Origin: Acidobacteriota bacterium
GTDB taxonomy: Bacteria; Acidobacteriota; Thermoanaerobaculia; Multivoradales; JBCCEF01
Direction: 5' to 3'
DNA: 64,000 bases
Assembly (NCBI GenBank): GCA_039028635.1
Contig: JBCCHV010000002.1
Coordinates: forward strand, 124,001-188,000
Shown one piece after another: positions 4,200-58,892 of the stretch. The notes below the pieces were generated by a model, which was given only the letters and a program-made list of their open reading frames with translations, searched no databases and was not told the origin of the DNA. Made by a program: the position numbers and the translations under genes. The first letter of the stretch is position 1; every line of letters begins with the position of its first letter.

Positions 4200-4260
4200 T
4201 CTTCCCGCTCGTCGTTAGTGCTTCAGAAAAGGAGCCGTCAGCTCCGAGGTGCCGGGCGCT

Positions 4261-34104: not shown

Positions 34105-34678
34105 CGGGAACGTCAGCCGACCGGCGGCCCACAACCGGCCGGATGAAAAGCCCTCCGACCACACAAACCTCCACACTTCTCAGCCGCGGCCGCGGCGCAC
34201 CGAGTCAAGGAACTCGAAAGTACCAAGTCGGAATTCAGGTCGGCGGTCGCGGTTGATTCGAAGATCACATTCAGACCGGATCCATCGGCACGCCGACGTG
34301 CCGCGATCTGCCAATACGCGGCACGCGCCCACGAGATCCCAGTCCACGAGAGCGAACTCCGGCGACCGGAATCAGTGAGCCCTAGAAGCTGACCCTCAAG
34401 AAACTTCTCAAGCTCGGTTCCCCAAAATCTGTACTGCCGGTGTCTACCTCTTCAGTACCGATGAAATCTCGGCTCGCGGGACCTGTGCAGCGGTATCCCG
34501 CAATGCACACAACCGAAGCCGGCAAGACCCGAAGATCAGATCGCTCACTCTCTGAGCGCGCCCTCTACCTGCTCCATCGAGATCCCTGGCCATACCGATG
34601 ACAAGAAAAATTCCAAGCCGAAGCCGGTCACCCCGAACGACCAGCATCGAGATTTCTTCGCGGGCGCATAAAGCCAAC
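34105..34678. other. Intergenic region with a 26-bp dyad upstream of the signalling operon
   Basis: About 570 bases without a credible gene. A hairpin CTGACG-GGAA-CGTCAG (34101-34116) covers the end of the frameshifted kinase tail. At 34484-34509 there is a nested dyad: TGTGCA + GCGG-TATC-CCGC + AA + TGCACA. It is a candidate operator or RNA hairpin for the operon starting at 34679. No clear promoter is seen. Confidence 0.5.
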
Positions 34679-36619: not shown

Positions 36620-36637
36620 CGAGAGAAAGGGGAGATT

Positions 36638-41842: not shown

Positions 41843-42240
41843 TCCGCGTACTGATGGTCGAAGACCAGCCGGTGGTTCTCAATTTCTGGCAGTACGAGTT
41901 CTCGAAGCATAAGGGTGAGTTCGAGCTACTCGTCGCCACTTCCGCCGCGGCGGCTCGTAAGATCGTCTCAGAGCAAGAGATCGACGTCGCCATCGTCGAC
42001 ATGGGAATCCCGATCGACCCGGACTCCCCTGACCCGAAAGAGCGCGAAGAGCATCCCCGAAACGGCCTTCTACTGCTCGAAGAGCTGAAGTCACGGCATC
42101 AGGTCAAGACCTTCGCCTTGAGCGGCACCCTCAATCCCAGTCTCCAGCGACACATCGATTGCCCACTCATCACCAAACCGGTCAAGGACTTCGAAGAGCA
42201 AGTTTTCACATTACTGAGAACAACGAATCCTGGAATCTGA
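41839..42240 (+). CDS. Stand-alone receiver domain with loop insertion
   Basis: 133 residues, GTG 41839 overlapping the kinase stop (GTGA). Acidic pocket in MVEDQPVV, phospho-acceptor Asp54 in VAIVDMGIP, Thr/Ser in FALSGT, and Lys in LITKPVKD. Between Asp54 and helix 3 (NGLLLLEELK) there are about 14 extra residues (IDPDSPDPKEREEHPR) compared with a normal receiver. No output domain, so it is a phosphotransfer or protein-binding partner of the giant kinase. Confidence 0.93.
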   Translation: MIRVLMVEDQPVVLNFWQYEFSKHKGEFELLVATSAAAARKIVSEQEIDVAIVDMGIPIDPDSPDPKEREEHPRNGLLLLEELKSRHQVKTFALSGTLNPSLQRHIDCPLITKPVKDFEEQVFTLLRTTNPGI

Positions 42241-42273
42241 TCTGTATCGCGCAAAGACAAGGAGGAAAGGACG

Positions 42274-43191
42274 TTGGCAGTCGAGCCCAATCCAACAGCA
42301 ATCGACGAGGCTCTCCAGAGGATGAACCGAAGCTCCGAGGAACCTGGAAGTCGGTACACCCTCTTCGTCGGAGAGCAACTTGCCGATCTCCGATCATCAT
42401 ACCAACGCATCTCTGACCATCGGACCGTCGCCGCTGAATCGATCGAGGAGGGTCGCTCACGCCTCAAAGAGCAGCGGAATGAGAGTCAATCGTTCCTCAT
42501 CGTGCTGGAGGCGCCTCCTGGCAGCGACAACCTCGGACGGCAACTGCGGTCTCTCGTCGAGCCCCTCGATGGAGCCTCACAGAGCCCCCGGACGGTGCTC
42601 TACGGCCAAACCTCCGTCGAGAGCTTCCGCACTATCCAGGACTGCCTCTACTGCCATGTCGTGGACTGGATTTCGGCGGCGACAGTCACGGAGGAAGCCC
42701 TAGAGCGGATCGAGGCCGCCTGGGGGAAGTCCAGCCTTCGGCTACTGGTCTTCGGCATGGGACTCCTGACCGGAGCCCCCTTGCACGCCTGGACACATCA
42801 AGCAACGCGCATGGAGCACCTGATTAAGCCCCTCGGGCTCGATCAGCTGGATAATGATCCGGCTTTCCTGTCGGCCTTCAGACTCGATGAGTCAGAGTTT
42901 CCGATCTCCGACTCGATGAAGCGCTTTCTCTTCGAGTTCGAGCTCAGGCAGCAAGTCGAGAAGGAGCGCTGGAATCGTCTCGGCATCGGAGGCCAAGAAA
43001 TGCAACACCTCCTCGACACCACAACGGACATTACAATCCGGCGGGTGGTCCTTCTGAAGTGCTGGGCGGCCTATCTTTCAGAGGTTGTCACCGGGATCGC
43101 CCGCATCACTCGCGTCGACCGGCGAGAGCTGGAAGAGTTTCTCGAGAACATCAGCCGTGACTTCCTTCCGAGAGAGCGGACCGATGACTGA
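42274..43191 (+). CDS. Hypothetical protein, possibly with a degenerate receiver-like domain
   Basis: 305 residues from TTG 42274, preceded by GGAGGAAAGG. I do not recognise the family. Residues about 72-150 (SFLIVLEAPPG ... PRTVLYGQTSVESFRTIQDC ... HVVDWISAATVTEEALERI) have the beta/alpha order of a receiver domain but no phospho-Asp in place. The C-terminal half is all helical (KRFLFEFELRQQVEKERW, VVLLKCWAAYLSEVVTGI). It lies between a receiver and a receiver-pseudo-AAA+ gene, and its stop is overlapped by the latter, so it probably works in the same cascade. Confidence 0.75.
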   Translation: MAVEPNPTAIDEALQRMNRSSEEPGSRYTLFVGEQLADLRSSYQRISDHRTVAAESIEEGRSRLKEQRNESQSFLIVLEAPPGSDNLGRQLRSLVEPLDGASQSPRTVLYGQTSVESFRTIQDCLYCHVVDWISAATVTEEALERIEAAWGKSSLRLLVFGMGLLTGAPLHAWTHQATRMEHLIKPLGLDQLDNDPAFLSAFRLDESEFPISDSMKRFLFEFELRQQVEKERWNRLGIGGQEMQHLLDTTTDITIRRVVLLKCWAAYLSEVVTGIARITRVDRRELEEFLENISRDFLPRERTDD

Positions 43192-44878
43192 CACCGCCCA
43201 AGAGGAGAAGTTCGTCCTCATTATCGACGACGACTCCGAATTCGTCATCGCCTGCATGCGCGAGTTGAGCCTCCAGTTCAGGAAGCTCGAGAATCCACAC
43301 CTGGACATTCCGACCTTTCTGAAAATCACCAACGTCGAGCAGCTGGAGAAAGCCCTCAGCCATCAGTCTGCGCATGGCGAGATCCAGTCCATCGCCTATG
43401 CCCTCGTCGACTATCGTCTGCCGACCACCGCATGGAGCGAAGACACCACCAAAGAGATGGAAGAGAACGGTAAGAAAGTGCTTCATATGCTGGAGGAGCT
43501 ACAGGTCCCGGTTCTGCTGATGTCCATCGCGGACAGGGAGCTGGTTGACGATCAAGTTCTGCATCACAAGGATGTCTGGTTTGTCCCGAAGAAGAGCTTT
43601 ACCGAAGAGGCGCCAGACATCGCCCGGCGGTTGCTGGCAAATCTCGAGGGCGCGAACGAGGTCAAGAGGCGAAAGGCGCGCCTGAGGGTCATCCGTTGCC
43701 CCAATGGCAAGCGATGCCAGACCCGAATTCTCCCCCTGGCTTTCGAGTCCAAGTCCATGACGGACATCGTCAACGCCATCCAGCGTGGGACCTTCCATCA
43801 AGCAGCCGCCACTCTCCTGGTCGGCGAAGAAGGAGTTGAGTTCGAGCAGGTCGCCTGGCTTCTCTTCGAGTCCTTGAGCAAGAAAGAGCTGGGATCAAAT
43901 CGCTCGATGCGGTTCGAGATTCTCAATGGCCGGGGTATGCCGGAGATGGAAGACGTGATTAACCGCCTGGAGGAGGCACTAGATGCGGATTCTCACGAGC
44001 CTCTCTTCGTCTTCTTGGAGAACACGCAGGCCCTCAGCGGCTGGGCCGTCACGCGGCTGGTGCACCACCTGGAGAATGCCATCTCGCTCGGCCCGGGCAA
44101 GGTGCGATTAGCCCTCATGGGATCTCGCATCGAAATTGATGAGCGCATCCAAGACCTCTTCGCCCTCGCCGGAAGCCCCGATTTCTTCACCATCGAGATT
44201 CCACCGCTGAGTCGACGCCGCGAGGACATTTCCCCCTATCTGGACTACTACCTGGAAGAGCGCAACCGCGGAGAATCGACCAGCTACCTCAAATGGGGGT
44301 CTCGCACTCACAACGTGCTTGCACAGCTCCAGTTCCACCGCAACTTCAAGGATCTTGCAATTCAACTTGAGGCCCTCTTCAGGAACAGCAGAAAAGGCGT
44401 CATCACAATCCCCGACATTCGGAGGATCATCGAAGAAAGCGATTTCTTCAGCACGATTTCTCAGCAGGTCGTCGAACGGATTTTGCGCTCAGAGGAAGTC
44501 TTCGCAAGGCTCGAAGAGGAAGGCGAGTTGGCCCACGAAGCGATGCGAGAGGACGCCGAACAACTCAAGAGTCTCTGCGCACAGATGATCTCAGCCCGCA
44601 AGCGAATGTCGGAAGAGATGACCGACGAGGACGACCGAATGCATCAAGACCTGAAGCGGATCTACGAGACCATTGCCACCATCGAAGGCCTGAGCAGCGA
44701 CCCTTCCGTGCTCTCGGGACTCGAGCAGCTCGATCGCTTCTGGCCCCTTGAGAGGTACCCCTTCTGTTCGAGCCTGTTGAAGGAGCTCGAGAAGAACGGT
44801 TACACCGTCGGCATCCGCCCCTTGCGCACTCGGCTACCAGAAGGTGTCGACCTGCAAAGCCGGACGAGCCATTTCTGA
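43184..44878 (+). CDS. Receiver plus degenerate sigma-54-activator-like AAA+ protein
   Basis: 564 residues from ATG 43184, overlapping the previous gene by 8 bp; longer frames start inside that gene. The receiver has FVLIIDDDSEF and Asp76 in ALVDYRLP, with an inserted loop (TTAWSEDTTKEMEEN). The following domain aligns with the AAA+ domain of the next gene, but Walker A (GETGTGKE) is replaced by VGEEGVEFE, Walker B (FLDEVGDL) by FLENTQAL, and no GAFTGA loop is seen. RIE..IPPLSRRREDISPYL-type features after it are kept. The C-terminus is a coiled coil of about 130 residues with no DNA-binding HTH. It is probably an inactive partner of the real activator. Confidence 0.82.
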   Translation: MTDTAQEEKFVLIIDDDSEFVIACMRELSLQFRKLENPHLDIPTFLKITNVEQLEKALSHQSAHGEIQSIAYALVDYRLPTTAWSEDTTKEMEENGKKVLHMLEELQVPVLLMSIADRELVDDQVLHHKDVWFVPKKSFTEEAPDIARRLLANLEGANEVKRRKARLRVIRCPNGKRCQTRILPLAFESKSMTDIVNAIQRGTFHQAAATLLVGEEGVEFEQVAWLLFESLSKKELGSNRSMRFEILNGRGMPEMEDVINRLEEALDADSHEPLFVFLENTQALSGWAVTRLVHHLENAISLGPGKVRLALMGSRIEIDERIQDLFALAGSPDFFTIEIPPLSRRREDISPYLDYYLEERNRGESTSYLKWGSRTHNVLAQLQFHRNFKDLAIQLEALFRNSRKGVITIPDIRRIIEESDFFSTISQQVVERILRSEEVFARLEEEGELAHEAMREDAEQLKSLCAQMISARKRMSEEMTDEDDRMHQDLKRIYETIATIEGLSSDPSVLSGLEQLDRFWPLERYPFCSSLLKELEKNGYTVGIRPLRTRLPEGVDLQSRTSHF

Positions 44879-44879
44879 C

Positions 44880-46547
44880 ATGAAGAGTCGCGGCCTCGTG
44901 TTGATCGTCGATGACGACGCGTCCCTCCACCTCGAGAGCTATCTTTCTTCGACTCCCTACGAGATCCGGAGAGCCTTCGACTGCGAGTCGGCCTTGAGGC
45001 ACTTGATGGACTGGGTCGGGCAAGAGAAGGAGGCGCCCTGCCTGGCTTTGGTGGACATCGTGCTACCAATCACCGCAACGGACCGCAGGACGGACCCCCG
45101 GGGCGGGCTCAAGCTGATGCCGGAGCTCAAGCGCATCGCCCCACAAGTTCAGCTCATCCCTATTACCGGCAAGGGTTGGGGTAGCGAGAGCACAGACCAA
45201 AAGGACATTCTCGACGAGGCTCGCCAGATCGGAATTCGGGACTACATCTCCAAGCCGATCACCCGAAACGAGGTCCTGGCGGTCGTGGAGAAGGCTTTCG
45301 GCCTGCGTCAAGGTCGGAGCACCGTCCAGAGCGACATCAAGCGCTATCCGGTGGACTTCGGCGATGGCGATCGGCGATACATCGTGAGTGTCGACAAGAC
45401 CATGCAGGACCAGGTGATCGGCCGCATCGTGATGGAAGCATCGAACGACCGCCCGGTGATCATCCTCGGCGAGACCGGCACCGGCAAAGAGCTGGTGGCG
45501 CGAGCGGTTCACGGCGCCTCGCGGCGAACCCGGTTCCTCTCGGTCAACTGCGCCGCAATCCCGGAGTCTCTGATCGAAAGCGAGCTCTTCGGCTACGAAC
45601 GGGGCGCCTTCTCGGGCGCCGTTCGCCGCAAGAAAGGCAAGTTCGAGCTTGCCCACGGCGGCACGCTTTTCCTCGATGAGGTCGGCGACCTCAGCCTCAC
45701 GGCGCAAGCCAAGCTCTTGCGCGTCCTCCAGGAGCAGCAACTCGAGCGAGTCGGGGGGACGGAGACCCTGCAGGTGGACGTCCGCATTGTTGCCGCAACC
45801 AACCAGGATCTCGAAGAGAAGATCGACAGCGGAAAATTTCGCGCCGACCTCTACTACCGCCTCGAAGGGCTCGTCATCGAGATCCCGCCCCTGCGCCAAC
45901 GGCGCGACGACATTGAGCTGATTGCCCGATACCACCTCGAAGCCCTCAACGAGAGGCACGGCTGCCAGAAGAACTTCGACGACCAAGCCCTGGTAGCACT
46001 CGTCGAATACAACTGGCCCGGGAATGTCCGCGAGCTTCAAAACGTCGTCAACCATCTCTACTACGCCTCCCGCGGCAGCACCTTCCTGGTCACAACGGAC
46101 CTGCCCAAGCGGTTGCGTGCTCGTCGCTGCCGAGTGACCCAAACGCTCGACCAGCTTGCGGCCGAGGTCTTACAGGACTCTCGCCTGTCGCTCGACGTTC
46201 TATCGATGCTGCTCGCTGAGAGGGTCTATCGCAAGGCAGGCAAGGATCATCGCAGAGCCAGTCAAGCCCTCGAGATCTCAGCCAATACTCTCTACAAATA
46301 CAAACGATCTCTCGAAGAGATCACGACAGCTCTGATCGACACCAATTTCGACGAGAAAGCCGCTGCGCGCCGCCTGCCCGACTTTGGCTCCGCCACCTTT
46401 CTTCGCAAGCGGGTGCGATCACTCCTCTATGGGAAGACCAAACAAGATATTCAGGCGGAGGGAAAGCGGGCAGGCTACCCCACCGAATGGACTTCCTACA
46501 TGACGAACGCCATTGCATCGCAGATCACCGGAGAAAGCCCTCAGTAG
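44880..46547 (+). CDS. NtrC-family sigma-54-dependent response regulator
   Basis: 555 residues from ATG 44880, one base after the previous stop. The receiver has LIVDDDASL, Asp59 in LALVDIVLP, an inserted loop (ITATDRRTDPRG) and Lys in YISKPITR. The AAA+ domain has Walker A GETGTGKE (about 196), the sigma-54 contact loop as GAFSGA (Ser in place of the usual Thr), Walker B FLDEVGDL and the arginine-finger region ADLYYRLEGLVIEIPPLRQRR. The C-terminal ~130 residues hold a Fis-like HTH (RASQALEISANTLYKYKRSL) and a second HTH-like segment (AARRLPDFGSATFLRKRV), longer than in standard NtrC. It is the likely DNA-binding output of the operon. Possible targets are the promoters at 51819-52037. Confidence 0.93.
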   Translation: MKSRGLVLIVDDDASLHLESYLSSTPYEIRRAFDCESALRHLMDWVGQEKEAPCLALVDIVLPITATDRRTDPRGGLKLMPELKRIAPQVQLIPITGKGWGSESTDQKDILDEARQIGIRDYISKPITRNEVLAVVEKAFGLRQGRSTVQSDIKRYPVDFGDGDRRYIVSVDKTMQDQVIGRIVMEASNDRPVIILGETGTGKELVARAVHGASRRTRFLSVNCAAIPESLIESELFGYERGAFSGAVRRKKGKFELAHGGTLFLDEVGDLSLTAQAKLLRVLQEQQLERVGGTETLQVDVRIVAATNQDLEEKIDSGKFRADLYYRLEGLVIEIPPLRQRRDDIELIARYHLEALNERHGCQKNFDDQALVALVEYNWPGNVRELQNVVNHLYYASRGSTFLVTTDLPKRLRARRCRVTQTLDQLAAEVLQDSRLSLDVLSMLLAERVYRKAGKDHRRASQALEISANTLYKYKRSLEEITTALIDTNFDEKAAARRLPDFGSATFLRKRVRSLLYGKTKQDIQAEGKRAGYPTEWTSYMTNAIASQITGESPQ

Positions 46548-48184: not shown

Positions 48185-49066
48185 TCAATTCGAGGGAAGC
48201 TTCGCAAGCTCGGCCATGAAGTATGTTTTCTCCTCCAGAAGGCGCTCGAAGATGAGCTCGAACTTTTGCCTTCGGCCAGCGTCTAAAAGGGCGATCTCAG
48301 ATCGAGCCCGCTCCATCTCGGCCTCGACGAAATCGTTGAGGATCTTTGCTCCTCCGAGCATGTCTCCACCCAGTTTCTGGAGGCAGATCACCGTGTTGAA
48401 GTTCGCGATCTCCAGATCCTCGAAGTAATCTCGAATATCATCGAAGGTCTCGCGAATCTTGTCGATGCGCCGAAAGATCGCCATTTCACTCTCCCGGCAT
48501 TCAAGATCGGCGACCCGCAGATAGATACGCCTGAGGAGGCCGAGGTCCGCTGACTTCAGATCCAGAATCGCGAAGATCTCCTCCCGGGAATATTGGATCT
48601 TGTCGTGCAGCTCATCGCGTTCCTTTCGGAGGTACTGGATGACATCCCGAAGACATTGGCGAATCCGGACATCCGAGAGGTCGTGTTCCTCGAGGAATTC
48701 TTCAATTCCCGCCCCGACCTCGGCCAGGCGCATCGCTGATCGGCGGTTGGCCCCGGCCCCTTCCTGCTCCGTATTGATGTCGAGCTCGTAGATGATCGTC
48801 TGGACATAGGTCAACCACACCAGCGACTGGATGTACTCGTCGACCGGCTGCTCGTGAAACTCCAAGGCGAACTCCCGCAGGTCGAAAGCCCAGGTGTGGA
48901 AGATCTTGCGCAGCAGGAAGAAGTACTCCCCCAGATAGGCTTCGTGGTACCTACGAAAAGCCTCCGCCTGAACGGGATCCTGCGCTGTCACCAACGCTGG
49001 GAAGGATTCCTCTTTGCGATCGATGAGGGCCGCCTCGCCCTTACCGAAGACTAGTCGGCTCGTCAT
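48185..49066 (-). CDS. Hypothetical helical protein between ABC transporter and radical SAM gene
   Basis: 293 residues from ATG 49066, overlapping the ATPase stop (ATGA). No recognised domain. It is almost wholly alpha-helical with long charged helices (LRDVIQYLRKERDELHDKIQ; RLLEEKTYFMAELAKLPS). The N-terminal part has aromatic-rich segments (RYHEAYLGEYFFLLRKIFHTWAF). Only 28 bp separate it from the radical SAM gene. A scaffold or substrate-carrier role with the transporter or radical SAM enzyme is possible but not shown. Confidence 0.78.
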   Translation of the reverse strand: MTSRLVFGKGEAALIDRKEESFPALVTAQDPVQAEAFRRYHEAYLGEYFFLLRKIFHTWAFDLREFALEFHEQPVDEYIQSLVWLTYVQTIIYELDINTEQEGAGANRRSAMRLAEVGAGIEEFLEEHDLSDVRIRQCLRDVIQYLRKERDELHDKIQYSREEIFAILDLKSADLGLLRRIYLRVADLECRESEMAIFRRIDKIRETFDDIRDYFEDLEIANFNTVICLQKLGGDMLGGAKILNDFVEAEMERARSEIALLDAGRRQKFELIFERLLEEKTYFMAELAKLPSN

Positions 49067-49884
49067 GAGTCCTGTCCTTTCCACTCTTCCAGCGCTTGAT
49101 TTCGAAAAAGTCCGTGGATCTTTCCCTCGAGCTGACGGAATGGCACCGAAGTCTTGATGGCCGAGGGACGAGGGCGACCAAAAGGAACATCGACCACGTC
49201 ACAGCAGCGACTCGGGCGAGCCGTCGAGATATAGATTCGATCGCCCAGAAAGATCGCCTCTTCGATGTCATGGGTCACAAAAAGAACCGTGGTCCTGGTT
49301 TCCCGCCAGACCTCAAGCAGAAGCTCTTGCATCTGCCAACGGGTCTCCACGTCGAGGGCACCGAAGGGCTCATCCATCAGAAGAATGTCCGGTGAATTCG
49401 CCATCGTCCGGGCGATCGCAACCCGCTGTTTCATTCCACCGGAAAGTTCTTTCGGGTAGGCATGGCGGAATTCCGCAAGCCCCGTCACCTCGAGAAAATG
49501 AGCCACGACCCTCTGCTGCTCTTCGACCTTCACGCCACGCAGCTCGAGGCCGAAACCGACATTCTCCTCGACTGTCAGCCAGGGGAACGAGGTATATGCT
49601 TGAAAGACTAGGCCACGGTCTCTTCCGGGACCATCCACCGCCCGGCCATCGACCAACACTTGGCCAGCCGAGGGGAGCTCCAGCCCAGAGACCATCCGCA
49701 GAATGGTGCTCTTGCCGCATCCCGAAGGGCCGAGCAGCACAAAGAACTCAGCCTCCGCAACTTGAAAGCTAGCCTCGGCGACCGCGACAACCGGCTCGGC
49801 GTTGACCTCGCGATAGGTTTTGACCAGGCTCTCGACCTGCACTTTCGGCGTCACTGCGGGCAGCACCGGTCCTACTCCTCCCAT
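49063..49884 (-). CDS. NrtD/SsuB/TauB-type ABC ATPase
   Basis: 273 residues from ATG 49884, overlapping the permease end by 13 bp. The long open frame upstream is a shadow of the permease. Walker A is LGPSGCGKST, the signature is LSGGMKQRVAIARTM, Walker B is ILLMDEPFGALD and the H-loop is FVTHDIEEAIFLGDRI. This subclass serves nitrate, sulfonate, taurine, bicarbonate and thiamine-precursor uptake. It partners the permease and lipoprotein encoded upstream. Confidence 0.94.
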   Translation of the reverse strand: MGGVGPVLPAVTPKVQVESLVKTYREVNAEPVVAVAEASFQVAEAEFFVLLGPSGCGKSTILRMVSGLELPSAGQVLVDGRAVDGPGRDRGLVFQAYTSFPWLTVEENVGFGLELRGVKVEEQQRVVAHFLEVTGLAEFRHAYPKELSGGMKQRVAIARTMANSPDILLMDEPFGALDVETRWQMQELLLEVWRETRTTVLFVTHDIEEAIFLGDRIYISTARPSRCCDVVDVPFGRPRPSAIKTSVPFRQLEGKIHGLFRNQALEEWKGQDS

Positions 49885-50759
49885 GAGGTCAACCACGCGG
49901 AGACAACCTTGAAGAGGAGATCGGTCAGCACTCCGATTGCACCGATGACCACGATCCCGGCGATGACTCGATCGGTCCTCAAGAAGCGCTGTGCTTCGCT
50001 GATGCGAAAACCAATCCCAGTTTGAGCGGCCACCAACTCTGCGACGATCAGATAAGTCCACGCCGCTCCCACCATGGCCCGAAGCGACTTGAGGACCCCG
50101 GGAAGCGCGGCCGGAGCAATCACGCGACGAAGAATCTGCCACCTGGAGGCCCCTAACGTGTAAGCGGTTTCGATCAGATCTTTCTTTACTTGATCCGCCT
50201 CCCCGGCAATCAAGATCAGCATGTAGAAAAACACTCCGAGAAAAATCACCGAAATCTTCTGCCCATGACCGATCCCCAGCCAAAGTATGATCAACGGGAT
50301 GAAAGCCGCTGCAGGCATGTAGCGCACGAATGCACAGAACGGACTCACGATGGCCTCGAGCGGCCGAAAAGTCCCCATCAGGATCCCCAGAGGGGTCGCG
50401 AGCAGAGCTGCCAGTCCGAAGCCGGCCAGAACCCGGAAGACACTCATCAGGATGTCGTAGGCGAAGTCCTCGGCCGTAAAGAGCTGAACGAGATCGGCGA
50501 CCACCGCCGTTGGCGTCGGCAAGAAGAGCGGTTTGACGATTCCCCCGTAGGTTAGGAAACACCACAGCATGAGGGCCCCGAGAAACGCGCCGGCGCCCAG
50601 GAGAATCGACCAGAGTTTCGGCAAAGACCTCTTGAATTCGAAGGCCTCGTGCAATCTCCGTCGCAGTCCAGTCGGCTGCTCAGGGGATTCGGGCTTCGGT
50701 CCTCTTGGGGCAGGAGATGTCCCGACACCGGCGAAGGACATTCCAGGCAACGGCCTCAT
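49872..50759 (-). CDS. SsuC/NrtB-type ABC permease
   Basis: 295 residues from ATG 50759 (MRPLPGMSFAG), overlapping the binding-protein stop (ATGA); the longer frame is not needed. An N-terminal soluble segment rich in Pro and Arg precedes six TM helices. The EAA loop is VKKDLIETAYTLGASRWQILRRVIAPAALPG, the classical ATPase contact of BPD_transp_1 permeases. It belongs to the operon 51751-47056. Substrate not predictable from the sequence. Confidence 0.93.
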   Translation of the reverse strand: MRPLPGMSFAGVGTSPAPRGPKPESPEQPTGLRRRLHEAFEFKRSLPKLWSILLGAGAFLGALMLWCFLTYGGIVKPLFLPTPTAVVADLVQLFTAEDFAYDILMSVFRVLAGFGLAALLATPLGILMGTFRPLEAIVSPFCAFVRYMPAAAFIPLIILWLGIGHGQKISVIFLGVFFYMLILIAGEADQVKKDLIETAYTLGASRWQILRRVIAPAALPGVLKSLRAMVGAAWTYLIVAELVAAQTGIGFRISEAQRFLRTDRVIAGIVVIGAIGVLTDLLFKVVSAWLTSWEE

Positions 50760-51751
50760 TGCTTCTCTTCCGAAGCCAGCTGGACCAAGGGGGACACCTC
50801 GGCAAACCCGGCCGACGGCCGTGCATCTCTCACCAGACCAGCAACCTCCCAAGCTCTTCCAGCGGCCTCGAAGGTAAGGTCGAACGCGCTTCCCCCACCC
50901 TCACCGACTCCGAAGTAGGCGAGGTTCTCCTCGAGATCGGCGTACTTGATCCCGGCGACCATGGCCGCAAAGTCATCCTCGGCCAATCCGAGCGCCGCCG
51001 CCATCGAGCGATTGGAGGCGCTCTCCTCCTGCTGCCACAGCTCCACGGCACGGAACCAGCCAGACAATAGTTTGACCAGGTCCGCCGGGCGCTCGAAAAG
51101 AACGTCTCGACGCACCACCAATATGTCCGAGATCAAACCGGGATACTCACGGGTCGTCGCCAGGACATGGCCGCCCTCCCGATCAGAGGCCTGGCTCAAC
51201 CAGGGCTCCCAGGTCACAGCAGCATCTACCTTTCCCGCCACAAAAGCTCCCCCGGCCTCACCCGCCTCCATAAAGCGAGGCTTGACCTCGGAGATTGCCA
51301 GACCGTTCCTCTCAGCGACGTTGAGCAGAAAGAAATGAGACGGCATACCCTGCGGAAAGGCAATCGTCTTTCCGGCGAGCTCGGCAACACTGCGAATCTC
51401 TGAGCCGGCAACGATTCCATCCGCCCCCAAGGAGTCGTCGGTCTTCAGGACAGCAACGGCAGGCACTCCGGCAGCGGCGGCATTGGCAAAATCATCGACC
51501 GTTGCCAGCATGGCATCCAGGGCACCGCTCGCCAAGGCAGACCGCCTGCCCGCTGCATCATCGAGAACCTCGAGCTCGACCTCGAGACCATCGAAGAAAT
51601 CTCGCTCCTCGGCCAGATAGAAGGGACCACTCCCAACCCAAGTCACCAAGCCGACTTTCAGCGGCCGCCCGGTGTCTCCACAAGCATTGAACAAGACCAA
51701 CAGAGCCACCCACGAAAGCAGGGAAACCCAGGTCCTTTCATGAATTCTCAT
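50756..51751 (-). CDS. NMT1/SsuA-type substrate-binding lipoprotein
   Basis: 331 residues from ATG 51751 with AAAGGAG upstream. The lipobox is LLVLFNACG. The fold is that of SsuA/NMT1/ThiY proteins: KVGLVTWVGSGPFYLAEERDFFDG, ALDAMLATVDDFANAAAAG, GKTIAFPQGMPSHFFLL, GKVDAAVTWEPWL. The ligand may be an organic sulfonate, nitrate-like anion or thiamine precursor; the motifs do not decide. It heads a five-gene operon ending in a radical SAM enzyme and diverges from the CHAT-SAVED gene. Confidence 0.92.
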   Translation of the reverse strand: MRIHERTWVSLLSWVALLVLFNACGDTGRPLKVGLVTWVGSGPFYLAEERDFFDGLEVELEVLDDAAGRRSALASGALDAMLATVDDFANAAAAGVPAVAVLKTDDSLGADGIVAGSEIRSVAELAGKTIAFPQGMPSHFFLLNVAERNGLAISEVKPRFMEAGEAGGAFVAGKVDAAVTWEPWLSQASDREGGHVLATTREYPGLISDILVVRRDVLFERPADLVKLLSGWFRAVELWQQEESASNRSMAAALGLAEDDFAAMVAGIKYADLEENLAYFGVGEGGGSAFDLTFEAAGRAWEVAGLVRDARPSAGFAEVSPLVQLASEEKQ

Positions 51752-52084: not shown

Positions 52085-54100
52085 ATGAAATACTTTGATT
52101 TCATCCTCGAGCTCGACCAGATGAAAGGAGATGACCTCGTAATCCGTGCCCATACCGACTCCTACGGCTTGACCACCGCAACGGAGATCATGGATACGGG
52201 ATTCGACCCGGAAGAGCTTCGGGAGCAGATGCAGGATTATGACTTTCGCACCCGCGCCCTATTCAAGAGCGACCACCCAGGGGCGGAGCGTGAGCAGGCC
52301 CTAAGTGGGCTTCAAGGAGATCTCGGCAGCCGCCTCTTTCAGGCTTTCTCAAAAGGAGATATCGGCACTGCTTTTCAGCGCTGCCTAAGTCGATTGGACA
52401 GTGATCGCAATGTCGGACTGAGGGTGCGGATCGCGTGGTCACCCAACAAAAGCAGTCTCAACGCAATCGCGGCAGCCCCCTGGGAGCTGATCCGCCGACC
52501 GCAAAGCGGCGACTTTCTTTCGCGCCGCAGCCGATTCCCGGTCTCACGCTTTCTTCAGGGCATGACGCCAATCACGCAATTGAAGGTGAATGGCCCCTTG
52601 AAGATCTTGATCGTCACCTCACAGCCGACTGACATTTCGCCAGTCGACGCCAAGCAGGAGGAGCTCGACATTCACCGGGCGTTCCGCAAGCGCCACGATG
52701 TCGAAGTGACCTCGGAATCACCGATTCTCGAACGGGTCCGGGACCGAATAGCTGACGACGGCATCAATGTCCTGCACTTCATCGGCCACGGCAACTTCGA
52801 TCCATCGACGTCCGAAGGCACAGTCGTCTTCACCAATAAGAAAGGCCTCGCGACCCGCTGGGCGGGAGACATGTTCGCGGAATACGTGACGGATCTTCCG
52901 AGCCTGCGCATGGTGGTGCTGTCGAGCTGCTACGGAGCCGCCCTGCCTCGACTCAACGGCCAAGACCCCTTCCTGACCATCGCCCCCAGCCTTCTTCAGA
53001 GAGCTGAGATACCTGCGGTAGTTGCCATGCAGTTTCCGCTGTCGAATCTCGCGGCGACAACCTTCGCCCGGCGCTTCTATCAGCGCATCGCCGTCGGTAC
53101 GCCGGTTGACGTCGCGGCCTGCGAGGGCCGCCTTGCCATCCACGCCCTTCGCTCCACACCCTCGCGCCTCGAATGGCCACTGCCGGTGGTGTTCATGCGA
53201 GTGGAGGACGGGCACATTCTCCAGCCTTCCGGGGCTACAGACTCGGAAGCCCGAACCAACGCCACCGTGACCAATGAGGATTCAGCTTTAGATTCCCGCC
53301 AAGAGGTCGGCCGTGGACTTCGCAGCAGCCCGCCCCGCAGCGCCGCGATCAAGGTAGGAATTCGCCTCTCTTCGAACGCCGTGGAATTCCCTCCACAGAG
53401 CCGTTTTGATCACATCTTCGAATTCGACGAGCCTTCCCCGAAGAGGGGCGATGCAGCGCCCCCCCTCGGGAACCTGACCGCCATCGCTCAACAGGCGGAA
53501 GTCTGCCTTGCCCCCCTGGCGATCAACCAACGGCCGATCGCCTTAGAGATACAGGCCCCCTGGAGCGTCGCCTTCTCCGCCGGCTGGGCTCTGCGAGCCA
53601 AGAGTGCCGTGGACCTGCGTGTCCACTCCCAACGACCCGACGGCACCAAGGTCTGGTTCGCCCTCGATACTCCGCCACCGGAGGGCTCCCTCTGGGAGCT
53701 CGACAGCAGGACTCTCGAGCGAGGAGTGCCGGACGTCGCCCTGGTAGCCAGTGTCAGCGAGAATGTCAGCGAAAACGTGGAGTACTTTCTCGAAACGACC
53801 GGAGCACCATCCGTAGGGCGCCTGATCTATGCCAACTGCCATCCCGTTCCGGGGCCAGAGGCCCTGCGCAGTGGCGCCCACGCCCGGCGCCTCGCCCAAC
53901 AGCTCGCCCAAGTTATTCGGCAAAGAACCCCGGCCGAAACCCACGGATGGCTCCATCTCTTCGTCGCTGCGCCGGCGGCCTTCTCCCTATTCCTCGGACA
54001 GCTCGCCCCTTCCTTCGGACCGCTACGGCTCTACCGTCAACGGAGAATCCCAGGAAGAGCCGAATTCGACTTCGAAGCCCATGTCGATCTTCGACCGTAG
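52085..54100 (+). CDS. CHAT protease-SAVED domain fusion protein
   Basis: 671 residues from ATG 52085. Residues 1-390 are a CHAT (caspase-like) protease with its usual N-terminal part (LGSRLFQAFSKGD, APWELIRRP). The catalytic dyad is His235 in LHFIGHGNF and Cys282 in VVLSSCYGAAL. A linker is followed, from about residue 420, by a SAVED domain: VALVASVSENVSENVEYFL-type core, then HGWLHLFVAAPAAFSLFLGQL and PLRLYRQ near the end. SAVED domains bind cyclic oligonucleotides in CBASS and type III CRISPR defence, and SAVED-CHAT proteases are known to be activated by them. Here CHAT is N-terminal and no CD-NTase or Cas10 is near, so the ligand source is unknown. Confidence 0.9.
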   Translation: MKYFDFILELDQMKGDDLVIRAHTDSYGLTTATEIMDTGFDPEELREQMQDYDFRTRALFKSDHPGAEREQALSGLQGDLGSRLFQAFSKGDIGTAFQRCLSRLDSDRNVGLRVRIAWSPNKSSLNAIAAAPWELIRRPQSGDFLSRRSRFPVSRFLQGMTPITQLKVNGPLKILIVTSQPTDISPVDAKQEELDIHRAFRKRHDVEVTSESPILERVRDRIADDGINVLHFIGHGNFDPSTSEGTVVFTNKKGLATRWAGDMFAEYVTDLPSLRMVVLSSCYGAALPRLNGQDPFLTIAPSLLQRAEIPAVVAMQFPLSNLAATTFARRFYQRIAVGTPVDVAACEGRLAIHALRSTPSRLEWPLPVVFMRVEDGHILQPSGATDSEARTNATVTNEDSALDSRQEVGRGLRSSPPRSAAIKVGIRLSSNAVEFPPQSRFDHIFEFDEPSPKRGDAAPPLGNLTAIAQQAEVCLAPLAINQRPIALEIQAPWSVAFSAGWALRAKSAVDLRVHSQRPDGTKVWFALDTPPPEGSLWELDSRTLERGVPDVALVASVSENVSENVEYFLETTGAPSVGRLIYANCHPVPGPEALRSGAHARRLAQQLAQVIRQRTPAETHGWLHLFVAAPAAFSLFLGQLAPSFGPLRLYRQRRIPGRAEFDFEAHVDLRP

Positions 54101-54134: not shown

Positions 54135-57100
54135 TCAGAGCCCACTGTCCGGCGCAGGTTCGGGCAAAGGTCGCCAATCGCCGACCAGAGCGAAGGCTCC
54201 CCAGTAAAAGGGGGAGCCCCGACCTTCCCGATCGGCGAGTTGAAGCTGTGCCCTCCGCAAGGCGGCAGCCGGCGCCAGGCGATCCCGCAAGATTCCTTCG
54301 TAGAAGTAGTGCATCAACTCTGCCGTCGCATCATCGTCGACTTCCCAGAGGCTGACGACCAAGCGCGACGCTCCAGCCGTCAGGAAACCCTGCGTGAGAC
54401 CCACCAGACCTTCACCCCGGATTTCCCGTCCGAGCGCCGTACGACAAGCGCTCAAGACCACCAGATCGGCTGGCAAGGTCAGATCTTGAATCTCGTGCGG
54501 CCGCAACAGGCCGTTGATCGGAGCACCTCGTCGATCGCGGAGCGAAAAGACCAACCCCGAAAGTTCCGGCTGCCGACCATCGACCAGACCATGGGTTGCG
54601 AAGTGCAGGATCCGGTACTTCGCCAAGTCGCCACCAAGAACCAACCCTCGAGTGGCCTCGAATCCGTCCGCCAGCAAGACGTCTCGATCATCCGCCAAGA
54701 GGTCGAGAATCTGCGAGGCTTCTAGACTGGAACCCTGCAACCGTCCAAAGGGACCGCGTCGCGCAGAGCGAGCCACCGCCAGCTCGAGGCCCTTCGGCCC
54801 TGCCCCGGCAGGCTGACCCGAAAACTGCAGGCGCGGGTCATCCTCCTCGAAAACGGCATCTGCCAGAATCGCCATGAGCTTCGGGGCCGGCGCGCGCCAG
54901 CTTCGCCGGCGAAGCTGGACCAAAACCGAGGCGGACGGCAGGCGAACCACCTCCACTCGCTGCAATAGAGGAACTCGCGACTCATCGGCATCGCCGGAAG
55001 CGACCGGCAAGACTGCGAAGGGGATGTAATGCAATGAGCCGTCGCCGACGACAACAACGCGCCCTTGTCTCAACTCTCGAGCCACAGGCCCCAAGACAGC
55101 ATCGCTCAGCTCTATCAGGGCCTGTCTCGACGCCGTTCGATACCCCCGGCGATAGCTTAGAGGCAGAAGGCGGTGGGCCTTCTCTGTCAGTTGGTCGATC
55201 TCGGACCTCGGCGGCAGCTCGAAGATTCGTACTTCCGTCGCATCGACCAACCACAGCCAGCTTCGTTCCTCACCGAGGAGATACGAAAGCAGCTTGGTGT
55301 CGCTCCCCAATTCTCTCTGAATGGCCCGCCCGGAAGCCGGCCGAACAACTGTCGGCAGGGATCCGGTAGAACGCCGGATCGCTTCCTCCGTCGCCTCGAT
55401 CTCCCGCCACAGGCGCTTTGCCCGGCGTGCCAGGACCTGGGTTGGGGCTCCTTGCTGAAGTGCTTGCAGGTGTTGCCGATGCAGAGTGTCGATCCGCGCC
55501 TTCAAGACCCCCTCGCGCCGGGCCAGCTCCGGCGGCACCGACTCGACGCGCTGCTCTCGACTCGAGATTTCGAGGCTCTCCAAAAGGGAACGGGCCTTCG
55601 CCTCCTCGGTCGTGTCGAAGCTCTCGAGTGCGACACCAGCGTCCCCGCCGCCGAGCGCCGTCTCGGCCAGCAGGTCCGCGAGCTCGATGTGAATCTCTTG
55701 ATGACTGCCGAAGTACGTCTGCCGAAAGGAAGGGAGAAATAGGCTTTGCCGCGCGGCCTCGATGCCGGCGACGGCGGCTTCCATCTCGCGTCGCGCCCGC
55801 TGACGGTCGCCAAGAGCCCGGAAACTCCGACCGAGCTCCGCATGAGCGACGACCTGCATGTGACTGACACCCAAATCGTCGAACGTGTCCAGCGCACCCT
55901 GGAGATCTTCGAGGGCCTCTCGTGGCTGGCCAAGGGCCAGCGTCGCAACGCCAAGGCCGAGCTGAAGAAAGGCCCTCGTCAGCTCATCCTCGCCACTCAG
56001 TGGCATCGAGCGACGAAAGTCCCTCACGGCCTCCACGGGGCGCCCGAGTCGGAGCAACGAGAAGGCCCGATGCTCCAATGTCAGAGCTTGGTCGCGCCGG
56101 GCTCCGGTCGCCTGGAAGATCTCCAGAGCACGACCGAATGCCTCGAAGGCTTCGTCCGTGTTCCCGGCCAAGCTCAGCCCCCAAGCCAGGGCACTGAGGG
56201 TGCGAGCCTTGGCCAGTTCCTGGTTCAACTCCTCGCGTAGCACGAGGGCTGCCCGCAGACTGGCGATGCCATCGTCGACACGGCCCAAGCTGAGGTAGTA
56301 GACGCCCAAGTTGTGAAGAATGTTGCCCTCAGAAGAGGTCACTCCCTGCCGGCGCCAGGTAGCCAGAGCCTGGTTGTAGGCGGCAAAGGCTGGTGTCAGC
56401 TCGCCCCTCGAGGCATAGAGCACTCCTAGATTGTTCCAAGCGACCGCCACTGCAAAGGGATTGTCCACCGCAAGCGATCTCGCGAGACCTTCCTCCAGAA
56501 CCTCTTCAGCAGCCGACGCCATGCTGCGACCGAGATAGACACCCCCAAGGTCGTTCAACAGGGGACCGAGCTCCCAATCGTTGGAGTGCTCCATGAAGGA
56601 CTGGCGCGCTGCCTCGAGCTCCTTCGCGGACCGTTCGAGCTCGCCCAGATCCTTCAAGGCCAGTCCGAGGCGATGGCGGAACCGACCCCTGAGCAGGGGC
56701 GGAGCGGAAGCGGGAAGTAAGACGAGAGCCTCTTCGAGAAGGACACAGGCTCGAAGCTGAGAGTCCGCTGACGGGGAAACGGCAATCTCGACCGCCCGAT
56801 CGAAGGAAGCCAGCGCAGCCAAGAGGGCTCGATCCCGCCTTGTCGGCCGGTCCGTCACTGCGACCTGCAGCCAATAGGAGCCAGAACCGAAGTGTGCTTC
56901 GACGTGCAGCTCGAAGACGCCGGTCGACTGCGGAGACAATGCTAGAAATTCTAGGCCATCCGGACCATTGGGACCATCCACAGAACCGATCTCGTTGCCG
57001 CCACCATCGACGAGCGCAACCGAAACATCGACCCCCTGCTGAATCAGAGCAACCTGTAGAAATTGACCTGGGCCGAGCTCGATCGGAAAGGAATGCCTGA

Positions 57101-57272
57101 TGCCAACAGCGATCTCTCGCCTCTGCTCAATGGCGCCGGCAACAAAAGATTCGCTCTCGGCAGATTCATCGATGAACGGAGCCGGGACAATGTCGCAGCC
57201 AACGAGCGCAGTCAGGAGACCCACCAGGACGAACCCAGAGCAAGCTCTCCAGCCAACGACCCTCACCGACAT
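54135..57272 (-). CDS. CHAT-domain lipoprotein with TPR array
   Basis: 1,045 residues. The signal peptide has a lipobox-like GLLTALVGC. A beta-rich domain at about 45-145 resembles a PPC-type domain (GPGQFLQVALIQQGVDVSVAL ... GSYWLQVAV). TPRs fill about 165-560 (e.g. AVAWNNLGVLYASRGELTPA; NILHNLGVYYLSLGRVDDGI). The C-terminal CHAT domain has His894 in LHFATHGLVDG and Cys943 in LSACRTALG, so it should be an active protease. It is encoded behind an ECF sigma and an anti-sigma-like gene on the same strand and converges on the CHAT-SAVED gene with 34 bp between. Regulation by that sigma factor is likely. Confidence 0.92.
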   Translation of the reverse strand: MSVRVVGWRACSGFVLVGLLTALVGCDIVPAPFIDESAESESFVAGAIEQRREIAVGIRHSFPIELGPGQFLQVALIQQGVDVSVALVDGGGNEIGSVDGPNGPDGLEFLALSPQSTGVFELHVEAHFGSGSYWLQVAVTDRPTRRDRALLAALASFDRAVEIAVSPSADSQLRACVLLEEALVLLPASAPPLLRGRFRHRLGLALKDLGELERSAKELEAARQSFMEHSNDWELGPLLNDLGGVYLGRSMASAAEEVLEEGLARSLAVDNPFAVAVAWNNLGVLYASRGELTPAFAAYNQALATWRRQGVTSSEGNILHNLGVYYLSLGRVDDGIASLRAALVLREELNQELAKARTLSALAWGLSLAGNTDEAFEAFGRALEIFQATGARRDQALTLEHRAFSLLRLGRPVEAVRDFRRSMPLSGEDELTRAFLQLGLGVATLALGQPREALEDLQGALDTFDDLGVSHMQVVAHAELGRSFRALGDRQRARREMEAAVAGIEAARQSLFLPSFRQTYFGSHQEIHIELADLLAETALGGGDAGVALESFDTTEEAKARSLLESLEISSREQRVESVPPELARREGVLKARIDTLHRQHLQALQQGAPTQVLARRAKRLWREIEATEEAIRRSTGSLPTVVRPASGRAIQRELGSDTKLLSYLLGEERSWLWLVDATEVRIFELPPRSEIDQLTEKAHRLLPLSYRRGYRTASRQALIELSDAVLGPVARELRQGRVVVVGDGSLHYIPFAVLPVASGDADESRVPLLQRVEVVRLPSASVLVQLRRRSWRAPAPKLMAILADAVFEEDDPRLQFSGQPAGAGPKGLELAVARSARRGPFGRLQGSSLEASQILDLLADDRDVLLADGFEATRGLVLGGDLAKYRILHFATHGLVDGRQPELSGLVFSLRDRRGAPINGLLRPHEIQDLTLPADLVVLSACRTALGREIRGEGLVGLTQGFLTAGASRLVVSLWEVDDDATAELMHYFYEGILRDRLAPAAALRRAQLQLADREGRGSPFYWGAFALVGDWRPLPEPAPDSGL

Positions 57273-57311
57273 ATCTCGCCGAACGCGAGACCAGACCAGA
57301 GCTCGGACACC

Positions 57312-58085
57312 CTACCCCCCGACGCTTTCCAGCGGAAGCAGCGTCAACCTGTAGCGCACGACTCGGCCGGTCACGCCATGGCTCAGGTCAAGCCAGAATT
57401 CTCTCCCTTTAAGGATTTCTCGAGGCAGAACAACCGTGACCACCCCTGCCGAATCCGCCACCAGCTCCTCCGCCACTTCGATTGCTCGAGAATCCTCACC
57501 GGTCACCTTCAAGCCATAGCGAGCTCCCGGCAGAAGCTCGGAGCCGGCGAGAGCCAACGTCACACCGCTTGCATACTCGGGAAAAACAGTCGACGAATCT
57601 CCGCGGGTGCGGGAATGCCCCTCGGGCAAGAGCTCGACAATGGGGGTATTGGCTTGCACTCCTAAGACCGAAGGCGGAGGAGTCGTCGGCCCGGAAGGAC
57701 CGAGTTGCCCAATGAAAAGGGCCGCCACTGCGCCAATCAGAAAGGATGCAGCGAGTGATGGCCAGCGGCCCTGCCACAACCCTCCGGACGCTTTGGAGGT
57801 CGCTGTGAAGATGCGGCCGCGAAAGTCCTGCCAAAGCTCTCCCCGACGGGATTCGCTCAGAAATTCTTCGTCCGATAAAGGCTCAAAGTCAGGGAATCGT
57901 TGCAAATCGAGGAGCAGCCGAGAGAGCTGCGGATCGACAGCGGCTCTGTCGAGCAGCTCGGCGCGCTCCTCTTCGGAGAGACGCCCTTCCAGAAATCCGA
58001 TCAGCACCTCAACAGGAGGTGCATCGCCGAGGCGCGCCCGCCGCTCGGCGATTACAGCCTCGAACGCAGCATTCCACTCGGACAT
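57312..58085 (-). CDS. Single-span protein, probable anti-sigma-like partner
   Basis: 257 residues from ATG 58085, with GAGGAGG upstream. N-terminal VEVLIGFLEGRLSEEERAELLDRAAVDPQL resembles the anti-sigma domain but lacks the zinc-binding His and Cys. One TM helix at about 108-127 (SLAASFLIGAVAALFIGQLG) is followed by a Pro-rich linker and an exported beta-sandwich (VTLALAGSELLPGARYGLKV ... GREFWLDLSHG). It lies between an ECF sigma gene (10 bp) and the CHAT-TPR gene (39 bp), so it probably holds or senses for that sigma factor. This is inferred from layout and the N-terminal pattern. Confidence 0.75.
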   Translation of the reverse strand: MSEWNAAFEAVIAERRARLGDAPPVEVLIGFLEGRLSEEERAELLDRAAVDPQLSRLLLDLQRFPDFEPLSDEEFLSESRRGELWQDFRGRIFTATSKASGGLWQGRWPSLAASFLIGAVAALFIGQLGPSGPTTPPPSVLGVQANTPIVELLPEGHSRTRGDSSTVFPEYASGVTLALAGSELLPGARYGLKVTGEDSRAIEVAEELVADSAGVVTVVLPREILKGREFWLDLSHGVTGRVVRYRLTLLPLESVGG

Positions 58086-58095
58086 CGCGACCTCC

Positions 58096-58767
58096 TCAGA
58101 GCATCACCAGAAAGCACAGAAGGCCGAAGAGCTCAACGCCAGCACCGAGGAGTGGCCTCATTCTGCTCCGCGCCAGTTTCAGCTGTCGCTTGACGGTATC
58201 AATAGCGACCCCTTGAATCTCAGCGATTTCCCGATACTTATACCCCTGATAACGAAGAAAGATGCACTGCCGCATTCTTGGAGGCAAGGCGCCGAGCGCA
58301 GCGCCAAGGCGCCCTCGGCGTTCGGCGTCGATCGTCGTCTCCAAGGGACCAGCCGATGGATCCGCCGACTCCACGATCACCGCACCTTCCCCGGAAGGCT
58401 CTTCCGGAAGCTGGACTTCGACCCGCACTTTCTGCGAGTGCGAGTGACGGAGCCAATTTCGATACACATTCAGCATGATTTGAGCGACCCACGTATCGAA
58501 GGAAGACCGGAATTGATAGCCTTCAATACCTCTATAGACCCGCAGCATCACTTCTTGGGCTAGATCGTCCGCCTCCTGAGCCAGCCCACGACGAACGAAG
58601 AAGTGCCGACAGGCGGGCAGAAATCTCCGATAGAGGCCTTCGAAGTGCTGCTCGACGTTGCTTCCGGCCTGAATCTGGCGCAACGCTTCTTCCACCGAAG
58701 CCCGCACCGCTCCTTTGCGGAAAGACGCCCCTCGAGACCACTCGGTGTCAGCCTCGCCAGAGGTCAT
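58096..58767 (-). CDS. ECF RNA polymerase sigma factor
   Basis: 223 residues from ATG 58767; an ATG at 58815 is also in frame. Region 2 has AQEADDLAQEVMLRVYRGIEGY and the promoter-melting segment SSFDTWVAQIMLNVYRNWLR. Region 4 has LPPRMRQCIFLRYQGYKYREIAEIQGVAIDTVKRQLKLAR. An acidic linker separates them. The C-terminus ends in a short hydrophobic tail (ELFGLLCFLVML), which is unusual and could tether it to the membrane or to its partner. First gene of the sigma / anti-sigma-like / CHAT-TPR operon. Confidence 0.93.
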   Translation of the reverse strand: MTSGEADTEWSRGASFRKGAVRASVEEALRQIQAGSNVEQHFEGLYRRFLPACRHFFVRRGLAQEADDLAQEVMLRVYRGIEGYQFRSSFDTWVAQIMLNVYRNWLRHSHSQKVRVEVQLPEEPSGEGAVIVESADPSAGPLETTIDAERRGRLGAALGALPPRMRQCIFLRYQGYKYREIAEIQGVAIDTVKRQLKLARSRMRPLLGAGVELFGLLCFLVML

Positions 58768-58892
58768 AGATCTTTCTCGACGAAGCACTCGCCTGTCGGA
58801 TGCGAGACGACCCACGGCGCTGAGTACCCCAGAAACCGGAGTCGAGGTGTCTGAAAAAGAAGACCCCGGGCTCTCGGCACGAAGCCAGAGCT

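What the first reader, a model, noticed from the sequence alone, without database searches (positions are those of the whole stretch)
52085..54100. CHAT protease fused N-terminally to a SAVED cyclic-nucleotide sensor, without a synthase nearby
Both catalytic residues (His235, Cys282) and SAVED hallmarks are present. Established: SAVED domains sense cyclic oligonucleotides in CBASS and type III CRISPR, and SAVED-CHAT proteases start proteolytic cascades. In this window there is no CD-NTase, no Cas10 and no CRISPR array. The neighbours are an ABC transporter operon and another CHAT protein, so this may be a non-standard defence or signalling setting.
Basis: partly seen in the sequence, partly recalled or inferred. 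Interest (0 to 1): 0.75.

Follow-up and report, generated by a model that had tools for sequence, protein, structure and literature searches.

The report
Protease switch beside a sigma-factor module
The gene encodes a protein-cutting enzyme joined to a sensor for viral-alarm nucleotides; in related bacteria it usually sits beside a sigma-factor gene-switch module, in genomes with CRISPR systems that can make such alarm molecules, but no known maker of the alarm was found in this genome's assembly.

Summary
ORF 52085-54100 (+) is a 671-aa CHAT-SAVED protein (PF12770 4e-16, PF18145 4e-19), with His235 and Cys282 invariant in ten aligned homologues. The "other CHAT protein" ends 34 bp away, facing it. 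It is a TPR-CHAT lipoprotein in an operon with a membrane anti-sigma and an ECF sigma factor (54135-58815, -). Among 13 CHAT-SAVED genes in 11 related genomes, 10 lie within 3 kb of such a unit (11 if two contig ends are one gene), against 16 of 68 other N-terminal-CHAT genes (p=4e-4). Ten of those 11 genomes carry type III CRISPR RAMP genes, often in the same locus; this genome is the exception. It has a type I-C-like CRISPR-Cas but no detectable Cas10, RAMP or CD-NTase (assembly 95% complete). Most likely the protein is a cyclic-oligonucleotide-triggered protease, the input arm of an ECF/anti-sigma switch. It works like CalpL/T/S or Craspase, has the reverse domain order of Haliangium SAVED-CHAT, and its partner resembles a split Myxococcus DdvS/DdvA. 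The sensor arm is exchangeable: SIR2-like or FGE-sulfatase domains replace SAVED in sister modules. New variant of a known kind; here probably orphaned. Ligand, cleavage and sigma release are untested.

The parts
52085..54100 (+). CHAT-SAVED protein, 671 aa: N-terminal CHAT cysteine protease domain (residues ~97-372, His235/Cys282), low-confidence linker 384-462, C-terminal SAVED sensor (~463-671); no signal peptide seen
   Evidence: Pfam/NCBIfam, PDB profiles, alignments, AlphaFold and fold searches, topology scan
54135..57272 (-). TPR-CHAT protein, 1045 aa, with N-terminal signal sequence and lipobox (LVGC), hence predicted envelope lipoprotein; catalytic His894/Cys943 invariant in 12 homologues; convergent with CHAT-SAVED, 34 bp between the two genes
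   Evidence: Pfam CHAT 4e-58 and TPRs; alignment A3; lipobox/hydropathy; linkage
57312..58085 (-). predicted single-pass membrane anti-sigma factor, 257 aa: four-helix N-terminal domain (Zn ligands not kept), TM 111-129, C-terminal Ig-like beta domain
   Evidence: no Pfam hit by itself; profile of the operon homologues has anti-sigma ChrR (4e-4) and 3hug (0.012) as its top PDB hits, DdvA at 0.58; homologues hit zf-HC2; TM; model
58096..58815 (-). ECF sigma factor, 239 aa, first gene of the operon ECF > anti-sigma > TPR-CHAT
   Evidence: Sigma70_r2 and r4_2, TIGR02937 1.6e-28; 40% identical over 194 aa to the ECF of the CHAT-SAVED/Cas10 locus L033

Best explanation
The protein is a cytoplasmic protease that is switched on when its SAVED domain binds a cyclic oligonucleotide, probably by stacking or filament formation as in other SAVED proteins. 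Its CHAT domain then cuts a partner of the neighbouring module, most likely the cytoplasmic side of the single-pass anti-sigma factor, so that the ECF sigma factor is freed and starts a defence transcription programme. The TPR-CHAT lipoprotein is a second, extracytoplasmic protease or sensor acting on the same anti-sigma from outside. In relatives the ligand would come from the Cas10 of a type III CRISPR system in the same genome. In this genome the sensor and the sigma module are kept, but no synthase was found, so the arm is either orphaned after loss of type III, fed by a locus missing from the assembly, or fed by an unrecognised enzyme. Shown here: domains, conserved catalytic pair, gene linkage, co-occurrence with type III, absence of known synthases in the assembly. 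Inferred: ligand, activation, substrate, sigma release.
For: Linkage: 10 of 13 CHAT-SAVED genes have the TPR-CHAT or ECF gene within 3 kb, against 16 of 68 other N-terminal-CHAT genes (Fisher p=4e-4). In G013 the missing partner probably lies across a contig break, which would make 11 of 13. Several orders occur: ECF>anti>TPR-CHAT>CHAT-SAVED (L036, L039, L040, L149, L179), CHAT-SAVED>ECF>anti>TPR-CHAT (L033, L038), convergent (window). Type III: 10 of 11 CHAT-SAVED genomes have RAMPs against 12 of 88 others, p=4e-7; within the four families f5-f8, 10/10 against 2/8, p=0.0015. L179 carries Cas10, RAMPs, CRISPR-like arrays, TIR-SAVED and the complete four-gene module on one 20-kb contig; L033 has Cas10b/Cmr divergent from CHAT-SAVED>ECF>anti>TPR-CHAT. 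SAVED-linked TPR-CHATs are not one clade (at least 4 changes forced by well-supported branches), so the pairing was probably made or kept repeatedly. Precedents in the literature: CalpL SAVED protease cuts anti-sigma CalpT and frees sigma CalpS (PMC11229360, PMC11417357); Csx29 CHAT cuts the sigma inhibitor Csx30 (PMC10028731).
Against: No Cas10, RAMP or CD-NTase in the own assembly, so there is no known ligand source here. In the window CHAT-SAVED is convergent, not co-transcribed, with the module. ECF/anti-sigma/TPR-CHAT units are common in these genomes without any CHAT-SAVED (10 TPR-CHAT hits in G000 alone), and two CHAT-SAVED genes (L032, L041) have no such unit nearby. The window SAVED departs from several conserved positions (e.g. 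H492>P, Q515>S). TPR-CHAT is predicted extracytoplasmic, so it is unlikely to be a direct substrate. The anti-sigma call for 57312-58085 rests on weak profile similarity and operon position. The type III association is partly confounded by kinship.
Confidence: 0.6

Rival explanations
1. Orphan remnant: the type III system that supplied the ligand was lost, and the CHAT-SAVED gene is a leftover that is drifting or has lost ligand binding.
For: No RAMP/Cas10/CD-NTase in the assembly; the window protein is the most divergent of the set in conserved CHAT columns (0.74) and among the lowest in SAVED (0.69).
Against: The ORF is intact with both catalytic residues and the whole sigma module; two homologues (L034, L035) whose genomes do carry type III genes score 0.66 in the SAVED columns, so the divergence alone does not show decay.
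Confidence: 0.25
2. The ligand is made in this organism by a type III or CBASS locus that is absent from the assembly.
For: 117 contigs, 95% complete; a CRISPR array runs off the end of contig C33; a same-genus genome, G001, has a DncV-like CD-NTase.
Against: The array adjoins I-C-like cas genes; G001 has no RAMP and no SAVED; a complete absence of several RAMP genes needs the whole locus to be missing.
Confidence: 0.25
3. CHAT-SAVED and the ECF/TPR-CHAT unit are neighbours only because both belong to families expanded in these genomes; CHAT-SAVED cuts an unrelated target.
For: Many TPR-CHAT and CHAT genes per genome; convergent orientation in the window.
Against: Adjacency of 10/13 is far above the few percent expected from roughly 10-15 TPR-CHAT genes per 6-8 Mb (my estimate), and above that of other N-terminal-CHAT genes (p=4e-4); same-strand arrangement in at least five loci.
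Confidence: 0.15
4. A cascade in which CHAT-SAVED first activates the TPR-CHAT protease, which then acts on the anti-sigma, like the Haliangium SAVED-CHAT cascade (cascade details recalled, not tested).
For: Two CHAT proteases with intact catalytic pairs in one module.
Against: TPR-CHATs carry a lipobox-like motif in 10 of 12 aligned homologues, which predicts the other side of the membrane from CHAT-SAVED; the automatic motif match is loose in L033 and L163.
Confidence: 0.1

Closest known systems
CalpL-CalpT-CalpS (SAVED-Lon protease, anti-sigma, ECF sigma; type III CRISPR)
   Same: C-terminal SAVED sensor on a protease; an anti-sigma and an ECF sigma factor in the neighbourhood; type III context in most relatives
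   Different: CHAT (caspase-like) protease instead of Lon; an extra TPR-CHAT lipoprotein; no type III genes in this genome
Haliangium SAVED-CHAT (PDB 8tl0)
   Same: Same two domain families; CHAT half E 3e-19, weak SAVED match
   Different: Reverse order: in 8tl0 SAVED ~130-252 and CHAT 278-454; here CHAT first; phmmer of the single protein does not find 8tl0. PADLOC already has a SAVED_CHAT model that aligns the CHAT part to profile positions 118-277 of 498, so the CHAT-first order may be catalogued
DdvS/DdvA of Myxococcus xanthus (ECF sigma and transmembrane anti-sigma controlling a CBASS and type III-B island)
   Same: ECF sigma, membrane anti-sigma, CHAT-like fold: DdvA 8rot 706-991 matches the window CHAT (Z 18.6); control of a CBASS/III-B island reported (PMC12288465)
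   Different: Anti-sigma and TPR-CHAT are separate proteins here; a fused zf-HC2+TPR+CHAT form exists in L162; no nucleotide-sensing protease in that pair as far as I know
Craspase (type III-E Cas7-11, Csx29 TPR-CHAT, Csx30, CASP-sigma)
   Same: CHAT protease acting on an inhibitor of an ECF-like sigma; CHAT fold Z 25
   Different: Activated by an RNA-guided complex, not by a nucleotide; no RAMP here
Cap4 (CBASS, SAVED-endonuclease)
   Same: Closest SAVED domain of known structure (7yia)
   Different: Nuclease effector replaced by CHAT; no CD-NTase found in the genome

Membership tests
SAVED-CHAT effectors | SAVED domain | tested here: met
   PF18145 3.9e-19, NF033611 9.7e-25
SAVED-CHAT effectors | CHAT domain with His/Cys pair | tested here: met
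   PF12770 4.2e-16; H235, C282 invariant
SAVED-CHAT effectors (Haliangium type) | SAVED N-terminal, CHAT C-terminal | tested here: not met
   Order reversed relative to 8tl0
SAVED-CHAT effectors | cognate type III or CBASS synthase in the genome | tested here: not met
   No Cas10, RAMP, SMODS or DncV-like hit in G000; 95% complete assembly. Type III RAMPs present in the other 10 genomes with CHAT-SAVED
SAVED-CHAT effectors | activation by a cyclic oligonucleotide | not testable with these tools
   needs biochemistry
CalpL-CalpT-CalpS | Lon protease domain | tested here: not met
   no Lon family match; CHAT instead
CalpL-CalpT-CalpS | anti-sigma and ECF sigma near the SAVED protease | tested here: met
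   57312-58085 and 58096-58815; in 10 of 13 CHAT-SAVED loci a module gene within 3 kb
DdvS/DdvA | anti-sigma fused to TPR-CHAT ectodomain | tested here: not met
   two separate genes here; fused in L162
DdvS/DdvA | sequence homology of the module's anti-sigma to DdvA | tested here: inconclusive
   profile vs 8rlz E 0.58; otherwise CHAT fold similarity only
CBASS | CD-NTase next to the effector | tested here: not met
Craspase (III-E) | gRAMP/Cas7-11 | tested here: not met
   no RAMP hit in G000; no dedicated Cas7-11 model was run

The most novel reading that the evidence does not exclude
A general two-protease sigma switch with exchangeable sensors: CHAT-SAVED, CHAT-SIR2-like, CHAT-FGE and other N-terminal-CHAT proteins each feed an ECF/anti-sigma/TPR-CHAT unit, with a cytoplasmic CHAT and an envelope CHAT acting on the two ends of one anti-sigma. 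In this genome the SAVED version answers a cyclic nucleotide made by an enzyme other than Cas10 or any recognised CD-NTase.
Probability: 0.15. Interest if true: 0.8.

Novelty: new variant of a known kind. Interest (0 to 1): 0.6.

Why it matters
If right, control of sigma factors by triggered proteolysis in CRISPR-type defence exists with a further protease arrangement (CHAT-first SAVED, beside Lon-SAVED and gRAMP-Csx29). The input domain would be exchangeable within one sigma module, and the linkage would offer a candidate trigger for DdvS/DdvA-like anti-sigma factors; for the Myxococcus III-B system the trigger was described as an unknown invasion signal (PMC11237760). It is directly testable with purified proteins from a relative that has both cas10 and the module (G020 C228, G006 C139).

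Tried and rejected
TIGR02578 hits in all genomes cover only the first ~100 positions in G000 and were read as unrelated HD-domain proteins, not Csm1. The genome-contig scan used a single CHAT motif, so most of its 80 loci are other CHAT proteins; it was not used for distribution counts. A phylum sample of 396 genomes has SAVED in 15; none of the fetched ones but ours has the N-terminal CHAT. SAVED-pocket decay was considered and not supported, since other homologues diverge as much. No shared promoter motif between the CHAT-SAVED and ECF upstream regions was established. A fold search with the anti-sigma model gave no anti-sigma match in its listed rows; the best rows are beta-rich proteins. 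The key DdvA papers (PMC6061681, PMC11506125) are not held. A sequence search of the window TPR-CHAT's CHAT part found no convincing PDB relative.

Full report
Observation. The ORF at 52085-54100 (+) is intact, 671 aa. Pfam finds CHAT at 97-352 (4.2e-16) and SAVED at 481-654 (3.9e-19); NCBIfam SAVED 9.7e-25; PADLOC matches many SAVED effectors and, for the CHAT part, SAVED_CHAT. An AlphaFold model (mean pLDDT 77.2, pTM 0.59; residues 384-462 poorly defined) matches Craspase TPR-CHAT over 2-374 (Z 25.0), separase (Z 23.7) and Cap4 SAVED (Z 25.0).

Domain order. A profile of the family finds 8tl0, the Haliangium SAVED-CHAT, with SAVED at about 130-252 and CHAT at 278-454 of that chain. The window protein has the reverse order, and its SAVED is closest to the CBASS effector Cap4.

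Own genome. G000 is 6.28 Mb in 117 contigs, 95.1% complete. It has one SAVED and no hit for SMODS, Cmr2/Cas10, RAMP or DncV-like NTase. The TIGR02578 hit on C53 covers only positions 7-102. A Cas1 on C33 lies in a locus with an 11-copy array near the contig end, and genes that I read by eye as cas2, cas4, cas8c, cas5 and cas3, hence type I-C (subtype not model-tested). So no known maker of a SAVED ligand was found, with the reservation of an incomplete assembly.

Neighbours. The facing gene at 54135-57272 (-) is a TPR-CHAT protein (CHAT 4e-58) with a signal sequence and lipobox; its His894 and Cys943 are invariant in 12 homologues. Upstream in the same operon are a single-pass membrane protein, 57312-58085, and an ECF sigma factor, 58096-58815 (TIGR02937 1.6e-28). 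The membrane protein has no Pfam match itself. A profile of ten operon homologues has the anti-sigma factors ChrR (4e-4) and 3hug (0.012; called anti-sigma from memory, the record says membrane protein) at the top of its PDB list and the DdvA anti-sigma domain at 0.58, and homologues hit zf-HC2. I call it an anti-sigma factor with moderate confidence.

Relatives. A search of 99 related genomes found many N-terminal-CHAT proteins with varied C-termini. Regions around them were fetched and scanned with profiles built here. Thirteen genes in eleven genomes (G000, G006 twice, G008, G013, G016, G020, G021 twice, G023, G027, G029, G044) are CHAT-SAVED. Ten of 13 have a TPR-CHAT or ECF gene of this module within 3 kb, against 16 of 68 N-terminal-CHAT genes without SAVED (Fisher p=4e-4). 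The profiles were seeded with window and CHAT-SAVED-locus proteins, which could favour the SAVED group. In G013, contig C171 ends inside a CHAT gene divergent from a complete ECF/anti-sigma/TPR-CHAT unit, and contig C224 begins inside a CHAT-SAVED gene; the two ends fit as one gene with a few residues missing, without sequence overlap.

Type III. RAMP genes occur in 22 of 99 genomes, including 10 of the 11 with CHAT-SAVED; Fisher p=4e-7 overall and 0.0015 within the four families f5-f8. These tests treat genomes as independent. G027's evidence is a single partial RAMP hit. On one contig, L179 (G020) holds TIR-SAVED, III-D-like RAMPs and Cas10 (PADLOC), CRISPR-like arrays and ECF>anti-sigma>TPR-CHAT>CHAT-SAVED. 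L033 (G006) has a Cas10b/Cmr locus divergent from CHAT-SAVED>ECF>anti-sigma>TPR-CHAT. L032 (G006) and L035 (G013) also have Cas10/RAMPs beside CHAT-SAVED.

Exchangeable sensor. In sister modules the CHAT partner carries other domains: SIR2-like (L163, L165), FGE-sulfatase (L158, L189), or nothing recognised. A tree of 37 TPR-CHATs does not group the SAVED-linked ones (at least four changes forced; the bootstrap had not settled). ECF/anti-sigma/TPR-CHAT units also occur without any such partner, as in G000 C24 and C56. The window ECF is 40% identical over 194 aa to that of L033; among fetched ORFs its best hits are L061, then L033 and L037.

Mechanism. CHAT-SAVED shows no signal peptide, while TPR-CHAT is predicted outside the cytoplasm and the anti-sigma spans the membrane. 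The simplest reading is that a nucleotide-activated CHAT-SAVED cuts the anti-sigma from inside and frees the sigma factor, with TPR-CHAT acting from outside. This is inference; it rests on precedent from CalpL/CalpT/CalpS and Csx29/Csx30/CASP-sigma. DdvS/DdvA shows that an ECF/anti-sigma pair controls a CBASS/III-B island in Myxococcus (PMC12288465), and the DdvA structure contains a CHAT-like region (8rot); further DdvA details are from memory because the papers are not held.

Limits. No ligand, cleavage or regulation was tested. Whether the window copy is active, orphaned or supplied by an unassembled locus cannot be told from these data.

Noticed in passing
window 58096-58815 (-): The ECF sigma factor ends in a hydrophobic stretch (residues 222-240, mean hydropathy 2.2), unusual for an ECF.
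   Followed up: no
window 34598-46547 (+): A run of large signalling genes: 673 aa and 1734 aa proteins without Pfam or NCBIfam match, a receiver-like 133 aa protein, a 597 aa protein with a weak AAA-lid match, and an NtrC-like receiver-sigma54 activator; its PADLOC RtcR hit covers only the AAA part.
   Followed up: partly
G000:C33 (L226:186-9024): Array of 11 repeats near the contig start, next to cas genes read as type I-C.
   Followed up: partly
G000:C76 (L042:8626-10392): A second N-terminal-CHAT protein in the own genome, with a TM segment and what looks by eye like a lamin-tail-like C-terminal domain.
   Followed up: no
L162:2808-6053 (-): Single protein with weak zf-HC2, TPR and CHAT, next to an ECF gene and another CHAT gene: a fused, DdvA-like form of the module.
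   Followed up: partly
L194:12007-16888 (-): TPR-CHAT directly next to a III-D-like Cas10, with TIR-SAVED and a CRISPR-like array on the contig, but no CHAT-SAVED found there.
   Followed up: no
G027:C693 (L046, L199): SMODS NTase hit directly after a SAVED hit (3743-4222 and 3162-3740), a likely CBASS pair separate from that genome's CHAT-SAVED.
   Followed up: no
window 48185-51751 (-): SsuA/NMT1-type substrate-binding protein, permease and ATPase operon with an unassigned 299-aa protein; no link to CHAT-SAVED found.
   Followed up: no
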